Assembly (NCBI GenBank): GCA_910890315.1
Contig: CAJVGD010000014.1
Coordinates: 682,001 to 746,000 of the forward strand
Source: Serendipita indica DSM 11827
Lineage: Eukaryota > Basidiomycota > Agaricomycetes > Sebacinales > Serendipitaceae
Direction: 5' to 3'
DNA: 64,000 nt
The notes under the pieces are model-generated. The model searched no databases. It saw only the letters and a list, made by a program, of their open reading frames with translations, and had not been told where the DNA came from. Shown in pieces: positions 46,463 to 63,932 of this stretch (its first letter is position 1; each line of letters opens with the position of its first letter). Position numbers and translations under genes: made by a program.

Positions 46463-48770
46463 TCATCTAATTACAGACGCAGAAGAAGGTGCACGATAGA
46501 AGAGATTTTCTTCCTCGCGTTTGCGAACAGCCGGGTCGTCCCACTCTGAAGTGTCGATGGATCCAGGACGGGCGATAGACGTGCCGGTGATGGAGATGGA
46601 ACCCGACTTTTCGCTAGGGAGGATGCCATTGTGGAGGGATGTAGCCTCTGACTTGCGGCTGTACGCACCAGGCGGTCGTCTACTATAACCAGCGGGGGCG
46701 CGTGGGGCTGGGGGGATCATGGCCGCAGCGTTTGCAAGACTTGCGTCGTCGGTGAATGGATTCTCGAATCGTGGTGGAGTTGTCTCTGAAGAGAGTGGGC
46801 TGGGTACATTTGCGGTCGCAGTGGTTTGAATCTCTACGGAGCGTCGGAAACGTGGGGAAGTTGGAGACAAGGAAACGTCCATTCTTCGTGGTGTTAGACT
46901 GCCTAGCGAATCGTGGAGGGATCGCCAGGCGAGTGGTTGACCTGGCTGGATCGAGAGACGCTCATCTGCGACAGGGGTAAGGACTTCTTCGACGTCGGAG
47001 AGTGGGTGATAGTGGACGACTTGTGTCCATCGCTCGTCTTCGAATTCGTTTGTAGTCGAGTCGCTCTGGCGACTGGTCGGTCGATCGCCAAATGCAGAAC
47101 CGAGGGCAGACATGATATCCGAGGCACCATCTGGACGAACGACTTCGCCCACTTCTGCCACCATCGAGAGCTGTTCGCGTGTATGTGCGTGGTGTTGATA
47201 CGTCTGACTACGCGGACGACCTCTGGCAACGACTGGATCGGAATTGAGCGAATAAGCGCTACTCATGGGACTCGCAGCGTCTGAGAGACGCTCATCGTGA
47301 CCACTGCTTGAGACGTAGGACGGGTTATTGAATGGATCGGCATTGGTGGCGCCCGCCGCCGACGAGGACGCTGTCGGACCAAAGCCGGCGATCCATGCAG
47401 ACGGACTGAGTGGCTCGCCCTTTGAATTTCTCCGGGGTGACGAATCGCGACCGAGATCTGATGAGGAATCGAGCCGGACGGCTTGTTCGGTTGGGATTGG
47501 TGGTCGGACGGCGGAGAGACGTGCATGAGGCAATGGCGGATGAGCGGAGACTCTGCGTTGGACAAACGGGACAAAATCTGCAGTTATAGCACTCCCAGTC
47601 GATGAGCGTGCGCCAAAGGTGTTTCCACTCGTGGACGTGGTCGAAGCGGCCTTTGCAGGGGCAGAGGGGAGGGCAAGGACGGAGATGGGTGGGGAAGTGA
47701 TAACCTCTGGACCTGATTGCGGGGAAATCTGCCTGTCCTGTTGTGAATGGGATTTCTCCAAACGGCCGTATCCCACGGGTTCATTGACCTCTGACCAACG
47801 ATTGTGGGCAACTTGGCGCTTCCATTCGAGAAGCTCGCTACTCTGGCTGTCCCGGCGCGTTTCCGGGGATTTGTTTATACGCGCCTTTATGCGGTGAACG
47901 AGGCCAGTGAACAAGGATGTCGAGGGGAGATGTGGGCGTCGGAGAATTGGACGAGAGGAGGAGAGATTGAGGAGACCCTTTGTGCCCATTTGTCTGTTTT
48001 TATCATCAATGAGAAAGTAATTATGATGGATTTGTAGACGCACCTAACAAGATCTGCCGATGTAGTCCCTGGCTGGCGAAGGGAGAGACGCTGGAGTTGA
48101 GCATTCCGCCGTTTCTTGTAAAAGTAACTGCAAAGAGCACAGAACGAGGCCAATAAGATGACGACGACGATAACGAGTCCGGTGATAAGGCCTTCTTTGT
48201 TGGACAAGCTGGCAGAGAGGTTAGCAAATAATTTCAGCATGACCTTTGCGTACCTTTCACCGCCCGTGTTTAGGGTCCCAGACGAGTTGCCAGACGAGTC
48301 TGCGCCGTCCGATGTCCCTGCGTCGCCGGGGATGCCCGTTGCACGCGGACCAACCGTCGACGAGAGGGTAATCGTATTTGAGCCATCGACAGAGACAAAG
48401 ACGGTCGTTTGAGTGTTGATAGGGCACACATTGGAAGTAAATGTTCCCCGTCGTTGGTGCGCTACTCGCAGGGCCGTTGGGACTGAATCCGGGGCGCTAC
48501 TTTGTGAAATTGTCCATCAATAGTCCATCAGCGCGTTTCACCCACATGCACTTACCGATTAACAACAAGACTCGACGACGGAGTTGGGTGTACTTGTGAC
48601 GACAACTGGCGGCTTTGGGATGCACGAAGACTGGCTTCGAATCCCTGTACACCCGCCCAGTCGTCGAGATGAGACAAAGGAGAGTAAACAAGCTGATGGA
48701 CTTGTCTTGACGCTACAAGTCGACACAGAAACAAGAGAGAAACGAGTGTGGGGCCGGTTGGTGGATGCAT
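46463..48770 (-). CDS. Single-pass membrane protein with signal peptide and long Ser/Pro-rich cytosolic tail
   Basis: The start MHPPTGPTLVSLLFLCRLVA (48770) gives a signal-peptide-like N-terminus. After VVNR, an intron (GTAAGT...CACAAAG) joins SAPDSVPTALRVAHQ in phase. The outer part is short and contains NVCPINTQTTVFVSVDGSNT. One transmembrane helix follows (GLITGLVIVVVILLASFCAL), with a basic stop-transfer YKKRRN. The cytosolic tail of about 500 residues is disordered, with many Ser-Pro sites and the end EENLFYRAPSSASVIR at 46463. The layout resembles fungal cell-surface sensors (Mid2/WSC-like), but I see no WSC cysteine pattern, so that role is only a possibility. Family not recognised. 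Confidence 0.7.
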
Positions 48771-49635
48771 ATTGGCAAGAGGCAGGACGAGCAGCGTCAG
48801 GCTGAACTCGCTGCACTCTGTATGCTACTACGACGGGACAACGTCGACGAGGAGGAAAAAGTAAAGAGAACAAACAACAGCCGCTGCCTCGGGGATGATG
48901 GGCGGAGAAACCTCGTCCAGCGTCGACGGGAGCCCCCGAGGTTCACGACCCTTGGGTTTGGAGCTTTTTAGTCCCCGAATAATAATAATGCATTCCATTC
49001 CACTGGCGTTTATCTGTCGCCCTCGTTGTCACCCTGTCGCCGAAGGAACAGTCGCTAGCGCGCGTTGCCCACCATCCCTCCTTATTGGTCCCGTCACCTT
49101 CTAGTCGATCCTGATCCTCTACAGCCCATCCCGGTCCGGCCCTTGACACTGCATGATTCCATTTGGTCGTCGAGTTACTATAGGCGTATTCAGTGAATGA
49201 CTTAATGCCTTTACTTTGACTTCAACTCATACTCAACTAGTCCAATCACTGTCAAAACTTGTTTCGTACAAATATTCTCAGACTTTGTTTCGTACCTAGG
49301 ACATTATCCTCGCCCGCCGCCCATCACCCCCTATACAATTGCAAGAAGCTCAAGGCTCCCGATGGCATGCTCGCCTACGTTCTCAACTTCTATCCAGAGC
49401 ACACCTCATGTGCTCAAATGTCTTCTCTTATAGATTATTCCCGCCGCTTGTTCTGCCGGCACACAGCATGTGCTCGTTTTCGCCCACTCGAACATCTTGC
49501 TCACTCACATCCCCTGACGTACTGTATTGAAGCATATCAGAGGCGTACACGAATCCAATGTGCTTAAATACCACGACTGCGGCATTCGTAGCCTAACCTT
49601 GCCAACTTTGTCTGCTTCCACCCAAGCATCCCCAA
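48771..49635. other. Intergenic: upstream region of the secreted peptide gene
   Basis: 865 bp between the divergent membrane-protein and peptide genes. No convincing exon is seen. A pair of similar dyad elements lies at 49397-49415 and 49459-49475, and a weak TATA-like TTAAATA at about 49564. Open frames at 49259-49567 overlap these and lack a signal peptide or domain. Confidence 0.5.
49397..49475. repeat. Two copies of a GCACAC..CATGTGCTC dyad spaced 60 bp apart
   Basis: The first copy (49397-49415) is GAGCACA-CCTCA-TGTGCTC, a perfect 7-bp inverted repeat. The second (49459-49475) is GCACA-CAGCA-TGTGC plus TC. Matching positions are 60 bp apart, about 160-240 bp upstream of the peptide gene's ATG. 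They could be sites for a dimeric transcription factor. Confidence 0.45.
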
Positions 49636-49875
49636 ATGCGAACCAATCTCTTCACTCTGGCTTTCCTGGCCCTCTCGGCCGTCGCACTTGCGCTCCCCAT
49701 CGTACGTCGACTGCCACCCAACGAAAGGGGGAAACACTGACGGCTTTGCCAGGACAAGGATATCAACGCCTTACCCGGCCCAGGTAAACGCACTGATGGC
49801 GACATTGAAGGTTTACCTGGACCAGGAAAGCGTGCTGATGGTGACATCGAGGGTCTCCCAGGACCGGGCAAGTAA
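49636..49875 (+). CDS. Secreted repeat-peptide precursor with Kex2 (KR) processing sites
   Basis: Two exons (49636-49701 and 49753-49872, stop at 49873-49875) encode only 62 residues. The first is exactly a signal peptide, MRTNLFTLAFLALSAVALA, ending LPI. The second is three repeats: DKDINALPGPGKR, TDGDIEGLPGPGKR and ADGDIEGLPGPGK. The dibasic KR after repeats 1 and 2 matches the Golgi protease Kex2, and the last repeat ends at a lone Lys. Predicted products are about 12-residue acidic peptides ending LPGPG after Lys/Arg trimming. Repeats 2 and 3 share an identical DGDIEGLPGPGK but differ silently in 7 of 12 codons. There are no cysteines and no C-terminal CaaX box, so it is not a lipidated mating pheromone. 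It fits the broad class of fungal Kex2-processed repeat proteins. Function unknown. Confidence 0.78.
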
Positions 49876-50145
49876 TCCGCAAGTCCCCCCCTATATGACC
49901 GCGTGGCCCTTGCGCTGATGATAAACGTAGATCATCGTGAAGAGAGTCATCAAGGGTTATCCTTCTTGTCTCTAGATGCAAGACCGAATGGCCAATTGCC
50001 CCCTATCAGTTGCTTACTTTCGTAGAATTTTCACTGGCCCCCCACACTCGTTTATTTCAGACTTTTGTTTTACCTCCGGACGCTGAATCCATGTTATGAT
50101 CTTTGAGATAATCAGGGGGGCCATCGCCTCTTAGAGCCTACCAAG

Positions 50146-51069: not shown

Positions 51070-51750
51070 CTAATGCCCAACTCTATCCATACCCAATCGC
51101 GCACGGATTTCATCGTCGACTTCGATAACCTCTTCCTTGTACTCGCCATCCAACTCTTCTTGAACTTTGGCTTCCATCTCTGCCCGTTTCTCACTACTCT
51201 CCGCACCTTCGTCGAGGTATCCCTTCCATCTCCTCACGTCCTCTGTGATATCTTTGATATCGCAAATCCATTCTTCTATCCACTGCTTGTTCAGATCACC
51301 AGAGATGCCAAGTTGTAGCGATCTGTAGTCCAATCGTCCAAGTCGGATGCTCCTCTCTGGGTCCCACTGTACGCGAACCGCTTTACTTCCATTGACATTC
51401 ATTCCCGGTCCCGAGGTCGGTACAGCGCTCTTTAGTAGCGTGAGGAAACCCTCAAACTTCATAGTGATTTGGAGAATGTGCGATTGATTCTTGTCCTTGA
51501 AACTCCAGCCAGCTCGATACATGCCTGTTCGAGTCAGTTCGTTGGTATTTTAGGAATTAAGGGCCATACACCAATAAAAAGAGGGTTTGATCCATGTCAT
51601 GCGTGTCATGGAAAAGGCGTCCGAGGCGTTGAGGCGTTGATGCTCGACTGCGGCACTTGCTATCTTGGCATTGTACGCCTGGTACACGATAATCGTATCA
51701 GGTGTGGGTCTCCTAGCGCGTATCTGCTTGTATGGTACCCGCGAGGTCAT
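51070..51750 (-). CDS. DUF4291-domain protein
   Basis: Two exons. MTSRVPYKQIRARRPTPDTI (start 51750) continues as VYQAYNAKIASAAVEHQRLN and MTRMTWIKPSFYW. It then splices (GTATGG...CGAACAG) to CMYRAGWSFKDKNQSHILQI. The signature [RMTWIKPSF-W-MYR-GW] and the opening IR.......T.VYQAY are those of DUF4291, a family known mostly from bacteria but also present in fungi. The second exon adds QWDPERSIRLGRLDYRSLQL and an acidic C-terminus ending at 51070. No biochemical role is established that I can cite. It ends close to the 3' end of the convergent zinc-finger gene (9 bp between stops). Confidence 0.85.
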
Positions 51751-59182: not shown

Positions 59183-62100
59183 TCACAAGTGAGCGTCTGT
59201 TCGAACATTCGTCCAAGAGAGGTCACATCGAAAACGAGTGAAATCAAGCTTAGTTGCACGGAATGAAGTCGCCGTCGGTATGTTGAGACAAAGACATGGA
59301 TTTCGGAGGCCATACCGATTTTCCGGCGGTACCCAGAAGAGACGTTTGCCGGAAGATAACACCCACCCATCCTGCGAAAGAGAGCACTGCATAAATCCAG
59401 GGATAGCGATTCCCAAGTAAGAGCCTCCTGGTAGTTCTCTGTAGTCCTGGCCAAGGCTATCCCCATCGGCATCTAACAGCGGTTGTAAGTCGTGTCATAT
59501 GATCAACGATATGCTATTATACTCACCGGTGTCGTTATTCCACACTTGGATTGTCATGTCCTGAGAGCCAGAGATGATTCGTGTGCCACCTGGCGAGAAT
59601 CCGACGGCGGTGACCAGGCCATGGTGACGTCGGAGTGGCTCTCCCAATGACTGACCAGTGTTTGCATCCCATAGTCGAATCGTCGTCGGACGAGCCAGAG
59701 ACGATCCGTGAGCCATCTGGCGAGAATCCGACGGCATTGACCGAGCCTTGGTGTCCTCGGAGTGGCTCTCCCAATGACCGACCAGTGTTTGCATCCCATA
59801 GTCGAATCGTGTAGTCGTACGAGCCAGAGACGATCCATGAGCCATCTGGCGAGAACGCGACGGCGTTGACCGAGCGTTGGTGACCTCGGAGTGGCTCTCC
59901 CAATGACTGACCAGTGTTTGCATCCCATAGTCGAATCGTCTTGTCTTCCGAGCCAGAGACGATCCGTGAGCCATCTGGCGAGAATCCGACGGCGTTGACC
60001 GAGCCTTGGTGACCTCGGAGTGGCTCTCCCAATGACTGACCAGTGTTTGCATCCCATAGTCGAATCGTCTTGTCTTCCGAGCCAGAGACGATCCGTGAGC
60101 CATCTGGCGAGAATCCGACGGCATTGACCCAGCCTTGGTGACCTCGGAGTGGCTCTCCCAATGACTGACCAGTGTTTGCATCCCATAGTCGAATCGTCTT
60201 GTCCCACGAGCCAGAGACGATCCGTGAGCCATCTGGCGAGAATCCGACGGCGTAGACCCAGCCTTGGTGACCTCGGAGTGGCTCTCCCAATGACTGACCA
60301 GTGTTTGCATCCCATAGTCGAATCGTCTTGTCCCACGAGCCAGAGACGATCCGTGAGCCATCTGGCGAGAATCCGACGGCGCAGACCGAGCCTTGGTGAC
60401 CTCGGAGTGGCTCTCCCAATGACTGACCAGTGTTTGCATCCCATAGTCGAATCGTCTTGTCGGACGAGCCAGAGACGATCCGTGAGCCATCTGGCGAGAA
60501 TCCGACGGCCTTGACCGCGCCTTGGTGACCTCGGAGTGGCTCTCCCAATGACTGACCAGTGTTTGCATCCCATAGTCGAATCGTGTTGTCGGACGAGCCA
60601 GAGACGATCCGTGAGCCATCTGGCGAGAATCCGACGGCCTTGACCGAGCCTTGGTGACCTCGGAGTGGCTCTCCCAATGACTGACCAGTGTTTGCATCCC
60701 ATAGTCGAATCGTCTCGTCCCACGAGCCAGAGACGATCCGTGAGCCATCTGGCGAGAATCCGACGGCGTAGACCGAGCCTTGGTGACCTCGGAGTGGCTC
60801 TCCCAATGACTGACCAGTGTTTGCATCCCATAGTCGAATCGTCTTGTCGGACGAGCCAGAGACGATCCGTGAGCCATCTGGCGAGAATCCGACGGCGTTG
60901 ACCCAGCCTTGGTGACCTCGGAGTGGCTCTCCCAATGACTGACCAGTGTTTGCATCCCATAGTCGAATCGTCTCGTCCCACGAGCCAGAGACGATCCGTG
61001 AGCCATCTGGCGAGAATCCGACGGCGTTGACCCAGCCTTGGTGACCTCGGAGTGGCTCTCCCAATGACTGACCAGTGTTTGCATCCCATAGTCGAATCGT
61101 GTTGTCGGACGAGCCAGAGACGATCCGTGAGCCATCTGGCGAGAATCCGACGGCGTTGACCGAGCGTTGGTGACCTCGGAGTGGCTCTCCCAATGACTGA
61201 CCAGTGTTTGCATCCCATAGTCGAATCGTGTTGTCGGACGAGCCAGAGACGATCCGTGAGCCATCTGGCGAGAATCCGACGGCGTAGACCGAGTCTTGGT
61301 GACCTCGAAGAGCTATAGGCAGCCCAGGATACGTTGCTTCGAGCCCTCGAGTTACTTCCAGAGTATTCCTATGCATTTTGAGGCCCTCTATATGCAGATT
61401 CGACTTTGTCGGAGTAAAAGGAAGCGCAGAGATGTAGATGTGTGGAGCGCTGTCCTGAATCGGCACTGAAAACGCCATCAAGAATCGTTGGATTTCGTTT
61501 ATGCCGTTTTGGACCTCCTCTTCAAGCTGTTCACTGCGTGAGACAGTAAAGTTACATGCGATAAGGCACTCACTCTCTGGCGTGGAATAGCCCGAAGGCC
61601 AGTGATTGCTCGTGGTACACCTCCAATGAAGCTCAGTATCTCCATCCAGTATAGTACATGTGGAACTTGTATAATATTATGAAGTTCCTTTTTAAGTATT
61701 GATCGCCAATTGTCGTTGGTTTCCGCCGCATGAAACGGCCAATGAGAGCTGGCATACCGAAGTCGTCTGGAAATGAACTTTGATACCTTGGCGTCCAAGT
61801 TTGGAATCTCCCTATTTAGATAGAAAGATGATTCAAGTTGACATATATTAAACTTCAGGCCTTCACTTCGTGACTGGAGGCTCTTGAAACACCATGATGC
61901 CGCTCGACCATGTGCATTGGCCATGTCGATATATACCTTATTGTGCGCTTCGACAGTAGGGTTACTGGAGCAGCGTCGAAGGTACTCAACGAGAGTTGGA
62001 TGACGAAATTGGATTTGCTTTGTGGCTCCATCCTCTGTGAGTACGCTTCCAAGATTCCGCACCAACGCGCTTGCGCTTCCCTCTACTCTAGCATGCTTCA

Positions 62101-63932
62101 GGATGTCGTCCAGGTCGTCGGCGGTGAGAGGTTCAAATGCGGCGAGTAGAAGAGCAAGCATTTGATACATGACCGCATGATACTCGGGTGCTACCCGCTC
62201 GAAGATGAGGCTATACAGATCATCTATGGCCCCAGCCTGATCTATCGAGACTAGACGATTGTATGTGCTTTCCGCCGGGATCAAGCTGGTATAATCACTG
62301 AGCACTCGACATGCAGTGCTTGCCCAAATGAACAGCCCGTTGGACTTGTCGATCAGCTTCTGCCTCTTTTCTTTGGACAGGATTCCATCTAGCGATTGGT
62401 GTACATAGATTGTGATGTCACCGATATTATCGCTGTGACGGACATCGTGCAGGCGGTCCTCTAGCTTGGATTTGATGGAGAGTGGCCCTAAGACTGCGTC
62501 GATAACAGGGTCTGGGCGACTTGTCATGAATATCGTGAGATTTTTGTTTGCTTGAACAGCCGTAGATAGAGTTTCAACAAGCTCTCGTCGTTGTGATGTA
62601 GATTTGCATTCATCAAGAGCGTCAATAACAAGAATAACGCGCCCTTGACGACAAAGGAGCGGATCCGTGATGAGTGTCTTGAACTGTTCGTCAAGGGAGC
62701 TTCGCATGACGGAGAGGTTCCGCTTCACAGCACCAGCCACGTCCGGTGCCAGTTCGGGGATATGGTGAACAAGGTCTCTGGCGATGGTGGAGCAGAATTT
62801 TTCTGTGGTCGATGCTTCGCTGCTTGATATAGAGAAGAAGAATCGACCGCCTAGGACTCCTTTCTCCCTCCACGACTCAGCCACGGACATTGCGACTGTC
62901 GATTTGCCAGAGCCGGCAATGTCACAAAGCCAAAATATTGGCTTCTCTGACGTATCATCGTTGGCCCAGCGCCAGATGGTTTGAAGAACGGCTTCGCGCG
63001 TTCCTTTCAGGCAGGTCCTGTGGACTGAGGACGCAGCGAATGCGACGATTGGTAGTTGGAGCATAGCAGAGGCATCGGCTGGGAATGATAAGCGAGGGCT
63101 TCATACAGAATTCCAGCTTACCGTCTGTTAGAAGAACCTTGGTATTCTCTTCAATGACCTTGGTATTCTTCTCGATGACTTTGGTACTCTCCTCGATGAC
63201 TTTGGTACTCTCCTCGATGACTTGAACATGCACGGCGGTGAACACTCCCAAGGCCTCCTGTGTCAAATAGTCAGCTTCTGACTAGGACTAATGAAGCTCG
63301 TACTATAAGGTGCCTATGCCGTTCTTCGATATCTCGATTGAGTTTCAAGATCTCCCCTGCGTCAATCTTCATTTTGCTGAATGATTTAAAGAAGCCAAGT
63401 TTGCGGTCGCGTTTGGCCTGAAGATTGATGACCGTATCATGCATAGTTTGGAGGAATCTGCATCTCTCAGTCCATTAAGACAAACTCAGACTGTTTACCT
63501 ACTCGACGTAGTGAACGAGCGGCTGTCTGACTGCCTTGTCGATGGCCCTGCCCTCTACAGGATACGCCTCGATCAATACGATTCGTTCCTCGAGCGCAGA
63601 TGTATAATCTTTCAGACGTTGTATTAGATCGACCCATTCTTGTTGATTGTTTTCTATCGCCTGTCGGACTCCTTAGATGAAGGCATGCTATAACAAGCTT
63701 GCCAACTGACCTGGACGACTCCAAGGATCGATTGTGTTGTTCTACAAGCTGCTTTAAGAGGAGCGAGGATATCTGATCCCTCGGCGATGTTTGCCAATAC
63801 GTCGAGACCGACATTGGCCGTGTTGTATACTTGGCCACGCTTGCTTGTTTGGTTGTGTGCGCTTGATGAAGATCCAGAGGAATTCTCATTTCCGTGCTTT
63901 TTCTTGGATTTGGATGTGCCTTGGCCCGACAT
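59183..63932 (-). CDS. NLR-type STAND protein: helical N-terminus, NACHT, 14 WD40 repeats
   Basis: Fungal NLRs are intracellular sensors of non-self that trigger heterokaryon-incompatibility or defence-like responses. [20 protein letters not shown] (start 63932) begins a basic, disordered start. A helical bundle follows ([60 protein letters not shown]), resembling HeLo/MLKL-like N-terminal domains. A linker made of four VIEE(S/N)TK-type units comes next. The NACHT domain has Walker [17 protein letters not shown] and Walker [12 protein letters not shown]. Fourteen 43-residue WD40 repeats follow, then a conserved tail ([20 protein letters not shown]) ending at 59183. Intron phases fit throughout. 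Repeat 13 (about 59681-59690) is 2 nt short relative to its neighbours, which breaks the frame, yet repeat 14 and the tail are conserved in the expected frame. It is therefore either a recent pseudogene allele or a sequence error. Confidence 0.85.
59548..61310 (-). repeat. 129-bp tandem array encoding 14 near-identical WD40 repeats
   Basis: Unit of 43 codons, consensus [20 protein letters not shown]... ending LGEPLR. Thirteen units at 129-bp spacing are almost identical; the fourteenth is diverged ([18 protein letters not shown]). Amino-acid variation is concentrated at unit positions 4, 5, 7, 23 and 25. Confidence 0.95.
63139..63222 (-). repeat. Four tandem 21-bp units in the NLR linker
   Basis: Units at 63139-63159, 63160-63180, 63181-63201 and 63202-63222. 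The last two are identical in DNA. Each encodes seven residues of the pattern VIE(E/K)(S/N)TK, suggesting a short amphipathic or coiled-coil spacer between the helical domain and NACHT. Confidence 0.9.

What the first reader, a model, noticed from the sequence alone, without database searches (positions are those of the whole stretch)
49636..49875. Tiny secreted precursor built of three Kex2-delimited LPGPG peptides
Seen: exon 1 is just a signal peptide, and exon 2 is just three repeats separated by KR. Repeats 2 and 3 are identical over 12 residues (DGDIEGLPGPGK), although 7 of the 12 codons differ, all silently. This points to selection on the mature peptide, not to recent duplication. Known: Kex2-processed repeat precursors exist in fungi and include pheromones, repellents and RiPP precursors. 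Inference: this gene encodes an acidic peptide signal of about 12 residues, ending in a turn-forming PGPG. It is not a CaaX-type basidiomycete pheromone and has no visible RiPP-modifying neighbour (no UstY-like gene in the window). I know of no described peptide with this sequence.
Basis: partly seen in the sequence, partly recalled or inferred. Interest (0 to 1): 0.82.

Follow-up and report, generated by a model that had tools for sequence, protein, structure and literature searches.

The report
Fungal precursor of three short peptides
A basidiomycete fungus carries a tiny gene whose product looks like a secreted string of three near-identical 12-residue peptides to be cut apart by the Kex2 protease; this is a known kind of fungal peptide precursor, with a sequence I could not find described and a function still unknown.

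Summary
A two-exon gene (49636-49701, 51-bp intron, 49753-49875) encodes 62 residues: a signal peptide, then three copies of a 12-residue core ending in LPGPG, split by KR. Copies 2 and 3 agree over 12 residues while 7 of 12 codons differ silently; independently drawn codons would differ at 7.6, so silent sites are randomised and the peptide is held by selection. The genome has two kexin loci, S10 carboxypeptidases and a DPPIV_N gene, so processing is plausible. I found no second copy. [quoted passage not shown] The core was in no paper text searched and had no relative in two non-fungal collections. Verdict: a new, so far orphan, member of a known kind. New here: if the LP left after signal cleavage is removed, all three cores are 12-mers; and the core resembles a Coprinopsis cinerea peptide, DDDPEGPPAPSW (weak lead). 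Expression and function are untested.

The parts
49564..49570 (+). TTAAATA, TATA-like, 65 bp before the start codon (possible core promoter)
   Evidence: Position; picked by eye, no promoter test made.
49636..49701 (+). Exon 1: MRTNLFTLAFLALSAVALA-LPI. Signal peptide residues 1-19 (predicted cut ALA|LP), then LPI, of which I can be counted to the first core
   Evidence: residues 5-19 mean hydropathy 2.42; A at -3 and -1. No SignalP was available.
49702..49752 (+). Intron, 51 bp, phase 0, GTACGT donor, CTGAC branch-like site, CAG acceptor
   Evidence: The window holds 35 motif matches of this kind of 45-65 bp, against a mean of 14.0 (maximum 20) in 30 Markov sequences.
49699..49785 (+). Core 1 (spliced): IDKDINALPGPG (LPIDKDINALPGPG if the LP is kept); interrupted by the intron
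49786..49791 (+). KR, Kex2 site 1
49792..49827 (+). Core 2: TDGDIEGLPGPG
49828..49833 (+). KR, Kex2 site 2
49834..49869 (+). Core 3: ADGDIEGLPGPG
49870..49875 (+). Terminal K (removable by a Kex1-like carboxypeptidase, inference) and stop TAA

Best explanation
The gene encodes a KEX2-processed repeat protein (KEP). Shown by sequence: a hydrophobic N-terminal signal, three cores split by KR, a terminal K, and silent-only divergence between cores 2 and 3 over 12 codons. Inferred: the 62-residue precursor enters the secretory pathway and loses its signal after residue 19. Kexin cuts after both KR pairs in the Golgi, and a Kex1-like carboxypeptidase trims the C-terminal K and R. A Ste13-like dipeptidyl peptidase may remove the leading LP of the first fragment. 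The fungus then secretes three linear acidic 12-mers: IDKDINALPGPG, TDGDIEGLPGPG and ADGDIEGLPGPG. LPGPG is the longest run shared by all three and is my guess for the recognition end. The function I think most likely is an extracellular message read by the same species (about 0.4); the precursor-and-processing part I hold at 0.8.
For: Gene model and translation. 7 silent and 0 replacement codon differences over 12 codons, close to the 7.6 expected for independently drawn codons. Codon-usage score of exon 2 is +10.1 bits in this frame; the other five frames score from +1.1 to -12.1. Synonymous codon choice of the gene fits nearby genes better than 99.9% of 2000 uniform recodings. Two kexin loci on contig C1: both match the P domain over the Pfam cut-off, and an open stretch of one (L008) matches yeast Kexin structures at E 1.6e-83. 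A DPPIV_N gene and S10 carboxypeptidases are present. Published peptidomics shows linear, minimally modified KEP peptides in agaricomycetes (PMC9769878, abstract, results parts 1 and 2 of 3, discussion).
Against: No transcript or peptide data. No orthologue in another fungus could be sought, because no collection open here holds other fungal genomes. Only three cores, one of them diverged. The antisense frame of the same stretch is also fairly conserved between copies 2 and 3 (6 silent, 2 replacement changes), so the silent pattern alone does not fix the coding strand; codon usage and the signal peptide do. The S10 hits were not resolved into Kex1 and other carboxypeptidases, and the intactness of the two kexin genes was not tested.
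Confidence: 0.8

Rival explanations
1. It is a RiPP precursor of the dikaritin (ustiloxin) kind: the cores are cut by Kex2 and then cyclised by UstYa-type enzymes.
For: Same precursor plan, signal plus Kex2-split repeats (PMC7329392).
Against: The cores have no Tyr, Cys, Trp or His. No UstYa match in the genome, though no control genome rang. In Basidiomycota only 103 of 1680 KEP genes lie near a DUF3328 gene (PMC7329392).
Confidence: 0.05
2. The peptides are C-terminally amidated (LPGP-amide), because each internal core ends in the animal-type amidation signal GKR (signal recalled).
For: Cores 1 and 2 end GKR and core 3 ends GK; the amidating enzyme PAM is reported outside animals, in Chlamydomonas (PMC6313938, search listing only).
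Against: No Cu2_monoox_C match in the genome (no control genome rang). The G is equally explained as part of a PGPG motif.
Confidence: 0.03
3. It is an alpha-pheromone-like mating peptide in a basidiomycete.
For: KEPs with alpha-pheromone features occur in Basidiomycota (PMC6339444).
Against: No XA/XP Ste13 dipeptide after either KR; no STE2 match (no control genome rang); the genome has STE3 matches at 7 places, the receptor type of basidiomycete mating (recalled); the cores have no Trp or Cys.
Confidence: 0.03
4. Same precursor and processing, but the peptides act on another organism (plant, animal, microbial neighbour) rather than as a message within the species.
For: Characterised KEPs are mating factors, virulence factors and mutualism modulators (PMC9769878 discussion); six kep knockouts had no phenotype in pure culture.
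Against: Nothing in the sequence points to a target. The C. cinerea peptides tested showed no antibacterial activity. Acidic, hydrophilic 12-mers (charge -1.2 to -3.6 at pH 7) do not look membrane active.
Confidence: 0.35
5. Not a functional gene: a chance or decayed repeat, or the coding strand is the opposite one.
For: No transcript evidence; one genome only; an antisense frame is open for 112 codons across the stretch and is fairly conserved between copies 2 and 3.
Against: Silent-only divergence over 12 codons, codon usage that fits only the sense frame (antisense frame -10.0 bits), signal peptide, splice signals, stop right after the last core.
Confidence: 0.07

Closest known systems
KEX2-processed repeat proteins (KEPs), PMC6339444, PMC7329392, PMC9769878
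   Same: Signal peptide, near-identical repeats, dibasic Kex2 sites between them; core length within the 9-24 residue class that PMC6339444 reports as commonest in Dikarya other than yeast-like basidiomycetes.
   Different: Fragments of the core not found in the main texts of the three papers nor in the library; only three cores; very short precursor. Supplementary tables and figures of these papers could not be opened.
Coprinopsis cinerea KEP 447393, detected peptide DDDPEGPPAPSW (PMC9769878)
   Same: Acidic D-rich start, EG in the middle, alternating prolines near the end; 6 identities without gaps with ADGDIEGLPGPG or TDGDIEGLPGPG, reached by 0.54% and 0.19% of 100,000 shuffles.
   Different: Ends in SW and lies in a non-repetitive C-terminus. 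Core 1 shows only 4 identities (15% of shuffles). One comparison chosen after reading, so a lead, not homology.
Ascomycete alpha-type pheromone precursors
   Same: Secreted repeats split by KR, Kex2/Kex1 route.
   Different: No Ste13 dipeptides after the KR sites, no STE2 match, no Trp or Cys in the core.
Ustiloxin-type (dikaritin) RiPP precursors
   Same: Secreted Kex2-split repeats.
   Different: No Tyr in the core, no UstYa match.
Ustilago maydis Rep1 (from a passage of PMC6339444)
   Same: Basidiomycete precursor cut into repeated peptides.
   Different: Rep1 peptides are 37 residues long and control hyphal wall properties; here 12 residues and hydrophilic.

Membership tests
KEX2-processed repeat proteins (KEPs) | N-terminal signal peptide | tested here: met
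   Residues 5-19 mean hydropathy 2.42, A at -3 and -1; hydropathy and the -3/-1 rule only, no SignalP.
[quoted passage not shown]
   Cores 2 and 3 identical over 12 residues, core 1 shares D-x-D-I-x-x-LPGPG; tandem repeat 49771-49872, 42-bp period, 2.4 copies, found independently.
KEX2-processed repeat proteins (KEPs) | Kex2 sites between the repeats | tested here: met
   KR after cores 1 and 2.
KEX2-processed repeat proteins (KEPs) | Release of the core peptides in vivo | not testable with these tools
   Needs peptidomics.
KEX2-processed repeat proteins (KEPs) | Processing enzymes in the genome (not a published criterion; my addition) | tested here: met
   Two kexin loci, S10 carboxypeptidases (Kex1 not singled out), DPPIV_N gene.
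Dikaritin RiPP precursor | UstYa (DUF3328) gene nearby | tested here: inconclusive
   0 matches in the genome, but no control genome rang.
Dikaritin RiPP precursor | Tyr (or similar) residue in the core for cyclisation (rule recalled) | tested here: not met
   No Tyr in any core.
Alpha-type pheromone precursor | Ste13 XA/XP dipeptides after the Kex2 sites | tested here: not met
   TD and AD follow the two KR.
Alpha-type pheromone precursor | STE2 receptor in the genome | tested here: inconclusive
   0 matches, but no control genome rang.
Basidiomycete a-type (CaaX) pheromone | C-terminal CaaX box (definition recalled) | tested here: not met
   Protein ends GPGK and has no Cys.

The most novel reading that the evidence does not exclude
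This is a conserved mushroom-lineage peptide message with a fixed LPGPG end, part of a wider family of acidic peptides of the form D-x-D-x-EG-x-P-x-P to which C. cinerea DDDPEGPPAPSW also belongs, secreted as three 12-mers and read by an unknown receptor or peptide importer.
Probability: 0.12. Interest if true: 0.65.

Novelty: new member of a known kind. Interest (0 to 1): 0.36.

Why it matters
KEP functions are largely unknown (PMC9769878 abstract), and 2560 of 7878 had no homologue (PMC7329392). This one is unusually clean: 43 residues after the signal, almost nothing but cores and cut sites, one copy found in the genome, and silent sites randomised while the peptide of cores 2 and 3 stays fixed. 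That makes it a convenient test case, since the masses of three products can be predicted and a knockout should remove little else. If the resemblance to the C. cinerea peptide holds up in other mushroom genomes, it would be a handle on peptide signalling in basidiomycetes.

Tried and rejected
Relatives: scans of GTDB contigs (595 pattern stretches, none confirmed) and of IMG/VR (218 stretches, none confirmed), PDB sequences (0), Pfam (0). The first two collections are not fungal, so those misses say little.

Paralogues in the genome: the protein search found only the gene's own two exons. L-P-G-P-G-K-[RS] pattern: 3 matches, 2 being the gene. DIxxLPGxG pattern: 4, 3 being the gene. PGPGK-[RS] pattern: 5, 2 being the gene (core 3 ends GK-stop and cannot match; the backward control pattern itself gave 1 match). 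I read the frame that holds the motif at the four other places (C43:117 kb, C14:909 kb, C2:2398 kb, C19:526 kb), 240 bases or more on each side: no KR-split repeats. Two of the four read PGPGKS, not PGPGKR.

Antisense gene: rejected by codon usage and by the lack of a signal peptide in its translation, although its wobble positions coincide with those of the sense frame.

Amidation, RiPP and alpha-pheromone readings: see rivals. A 5.8S rRNA search meant to help name the species found nothing (39 of 783 candidates scored). Rfam and ARAGORN found nothing in the window. Only 20 stretches of the window's open frames were scanned with Pfam, not all of those listed. One search failed in part on a file name of mine and was redone.

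Full report
What is there. The stretch 49636-49875 on the + strand reads as a two-exon gene. Exon 1 (49636-49701) gives MRTNLFTLAFLALSAVALALPI. A 51-bp intron (49702-49752) with GTACGT, CTGAC and CAG follows. Exon 2 (49753-49875) gives DKDINALPGPGKRTDGDIEGLPGPGKRADGDIEGLPGPGK and TAA. Left unspliced, the first exon runs into a TGA within the intron (49738-49740), and from there to the TAA there is no ATG, GTG or TTG in frame. Motif matches of this intron type are commoner in the window (35) than in 30 Markov sequences (mean 14.0, maximum 20).

Is it more than chance. Cores 2 and 3 share 12 of 12 residues (DGDIEGLPGPGK) while 7 of 12 codons differ, all silently, by 8 base changes. If 8 changes fell at random, the peptide stayed unchanged in 0 of 200,000 trials for kappa 1 and for kappa 2 and in 1 of 200,000 for kappa 4, for each starting copy. 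Codons drawn independently from the usage of 2348 nearby codons (counted) would differ at 7.6 of 12 (standard deviation 1.6), so the silent sites look randomised. The repeat is therefore probably old and the peptide kept. The residue just before differs (T/A), and core 1 differs in residue from cores 2 and 3 at 3 of the 12 aligned codons; what all three share is D-x-D-I-x-x-LPGPG-K. No other exact KR- or RR-joined repeat of 6 or more residues occurs in the window, and none in 100 Markov windows.

Which strand. The opposite strand is open across the repeat for 112 codons, and its wobble bases coincide with those of the sense frame, so between cores 2 and 3 it also shows mostly silent changes (6 silent, 2 replacement). 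This is a result against relying on the silent pattern alone. Codon usage separates them: exon 2 scores +10.1 bits in the sense frame and -10.0 in that antisense frame; the other four frames score +1.1, +0.2, -5.3 and -12.1. By eye, the antisense translation shows no signal peptide.

The organism. STE3 matches at 7 places (17 rows), a NACHT-type and a WD40 frame side by side and short introns suggest a basidiomycete, probably an agaricomycete; that step rests on recalled knowledge, and the species is not identified. 5.8S rRNA was not found.

How it most likely works. Kexin is present at two places on contig C1: both match the P domain above the cut-off, the two loci share 85% DNA identity over 2501 bp in opposite orientation, and an open stretch of one matches yeast Kexin structures at E 1.6e-83. 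I did not test whether both genes are whole. S10 carboxypeptidases and a DPPIV_N gene are present. Kexin would cut after each KR and a Kex1-like enzyme would trim K and R. Signal cleavage at ALA|LP leaves LPIDKDINALPGPG; removal of LP, an X-P dipeptide of the kind Ste13 takes, would leave IDKDINALPGPG, so that all three products would be 12-mers of the form x-D-x-D-I-x-x-L-P-G-P-G. This equal length is an inference of this report. The products would be acidic (charge -1.2 to -3.6 at pH 7). Secretion of acidic linear peptides that act outside the cell is the likely outcome; who reads them is unknown.

What it is among known things. Le Marquer and colleagues (PMC6339444; passages and one of seven parts read) scanned for a signal peptide, internal repeats and Kex2 sites between them and named the class KEPs. 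All three features are met here. Umemura (PMC7329392; abstract, passages and section 6 read) counted 7878 KEPs in 1345 of 1461 strains, 2560 of them without homologues, so an orphan KEP is an ordinary finding. Vogt and colleagues (PMC9769878; abstract, results parts 1 and 2 of 3 and discussion read) showed linear KEP peptides in mushrooms; six knockouts had no visible phenotype in pure culture, and no antibacterial activity of the peptides tested was seen. The gene lacks the XA/XP signature of alpha-type pheromone precursors and the CaaX end of basidiomycete pheromones, and its core lacks Tyr. UstYa, STE2 and the amidating enzyme were not found, but in none of these three searches did a control genome ring, so absence is not proven.

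A lead. The C. cinerea peptide DDDPEGPPAPSW and ADGDIEGLPGPG agree at 6 places without gaps; 0.54% of shuffles do as well (0.19% for TDGDIEGLPGPG, 15% for core 1 with 4 agreements). The comparison was picked after reading, so it is a hint only.

What could not be done. No collection open here holds other fungal genomes; the scans of prokaryote and viral contigs gave nothing. Supplementary tables were closed, and the core could be listed there. The paper searches for LPGPG with fung (word starts only) and for LPGPGKR, DGDIEGLP, DIEGLPGP and GLPGPGKR (anywhere in a word) found no paper in the library's full texts; figures and supplements are not covered.

Noticed in passing
window 59538-63100, - strand: NACHT/NPHP3_N ATPase frame (61502-63100) next to a WD40 frame (59538-61676), perhaps one gene; 13.5 copies of a 129-bp unit at 95% match, 11 of 12 neighbouring copies in my register 91-98% identical, the first pair 26%, probably the edge of the array. 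Looks like a fast-renewing NLR-type recognition gene.
   Followed up: partly
L007 and L008 (genome contig C1, about 19 kb apart): Two kexin loci in opposite orientation, 85% identical DNA over 2501 bp: a local duplicate of the processing protease.
   Followed up: partly
window 49593-49931, - strand: Antisense open frame of 112 codons that also reads as PGPG repeats, because its wobble bases fall on those of the sense gene.
   Followed up: yes
window 51073-51549, - strand: DUF4291 frame (E 4.1e-31) beside AMG1-type phosphoacetylglucosamine mutase exons.
   Followed up: no
window 47890-48516, - strand: Frame with one apparent membrane span and a Ser/Thr-rich stretch (by eye), no Pfam match; upstream of the peptide gene, on the opposite strand.
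   Followed up: no
window 63139-63223: Four copies of a 21-bp unit, read on the - strand as VIEESTK-like repeats, just outside the NACHT frame.
   Followed up: no
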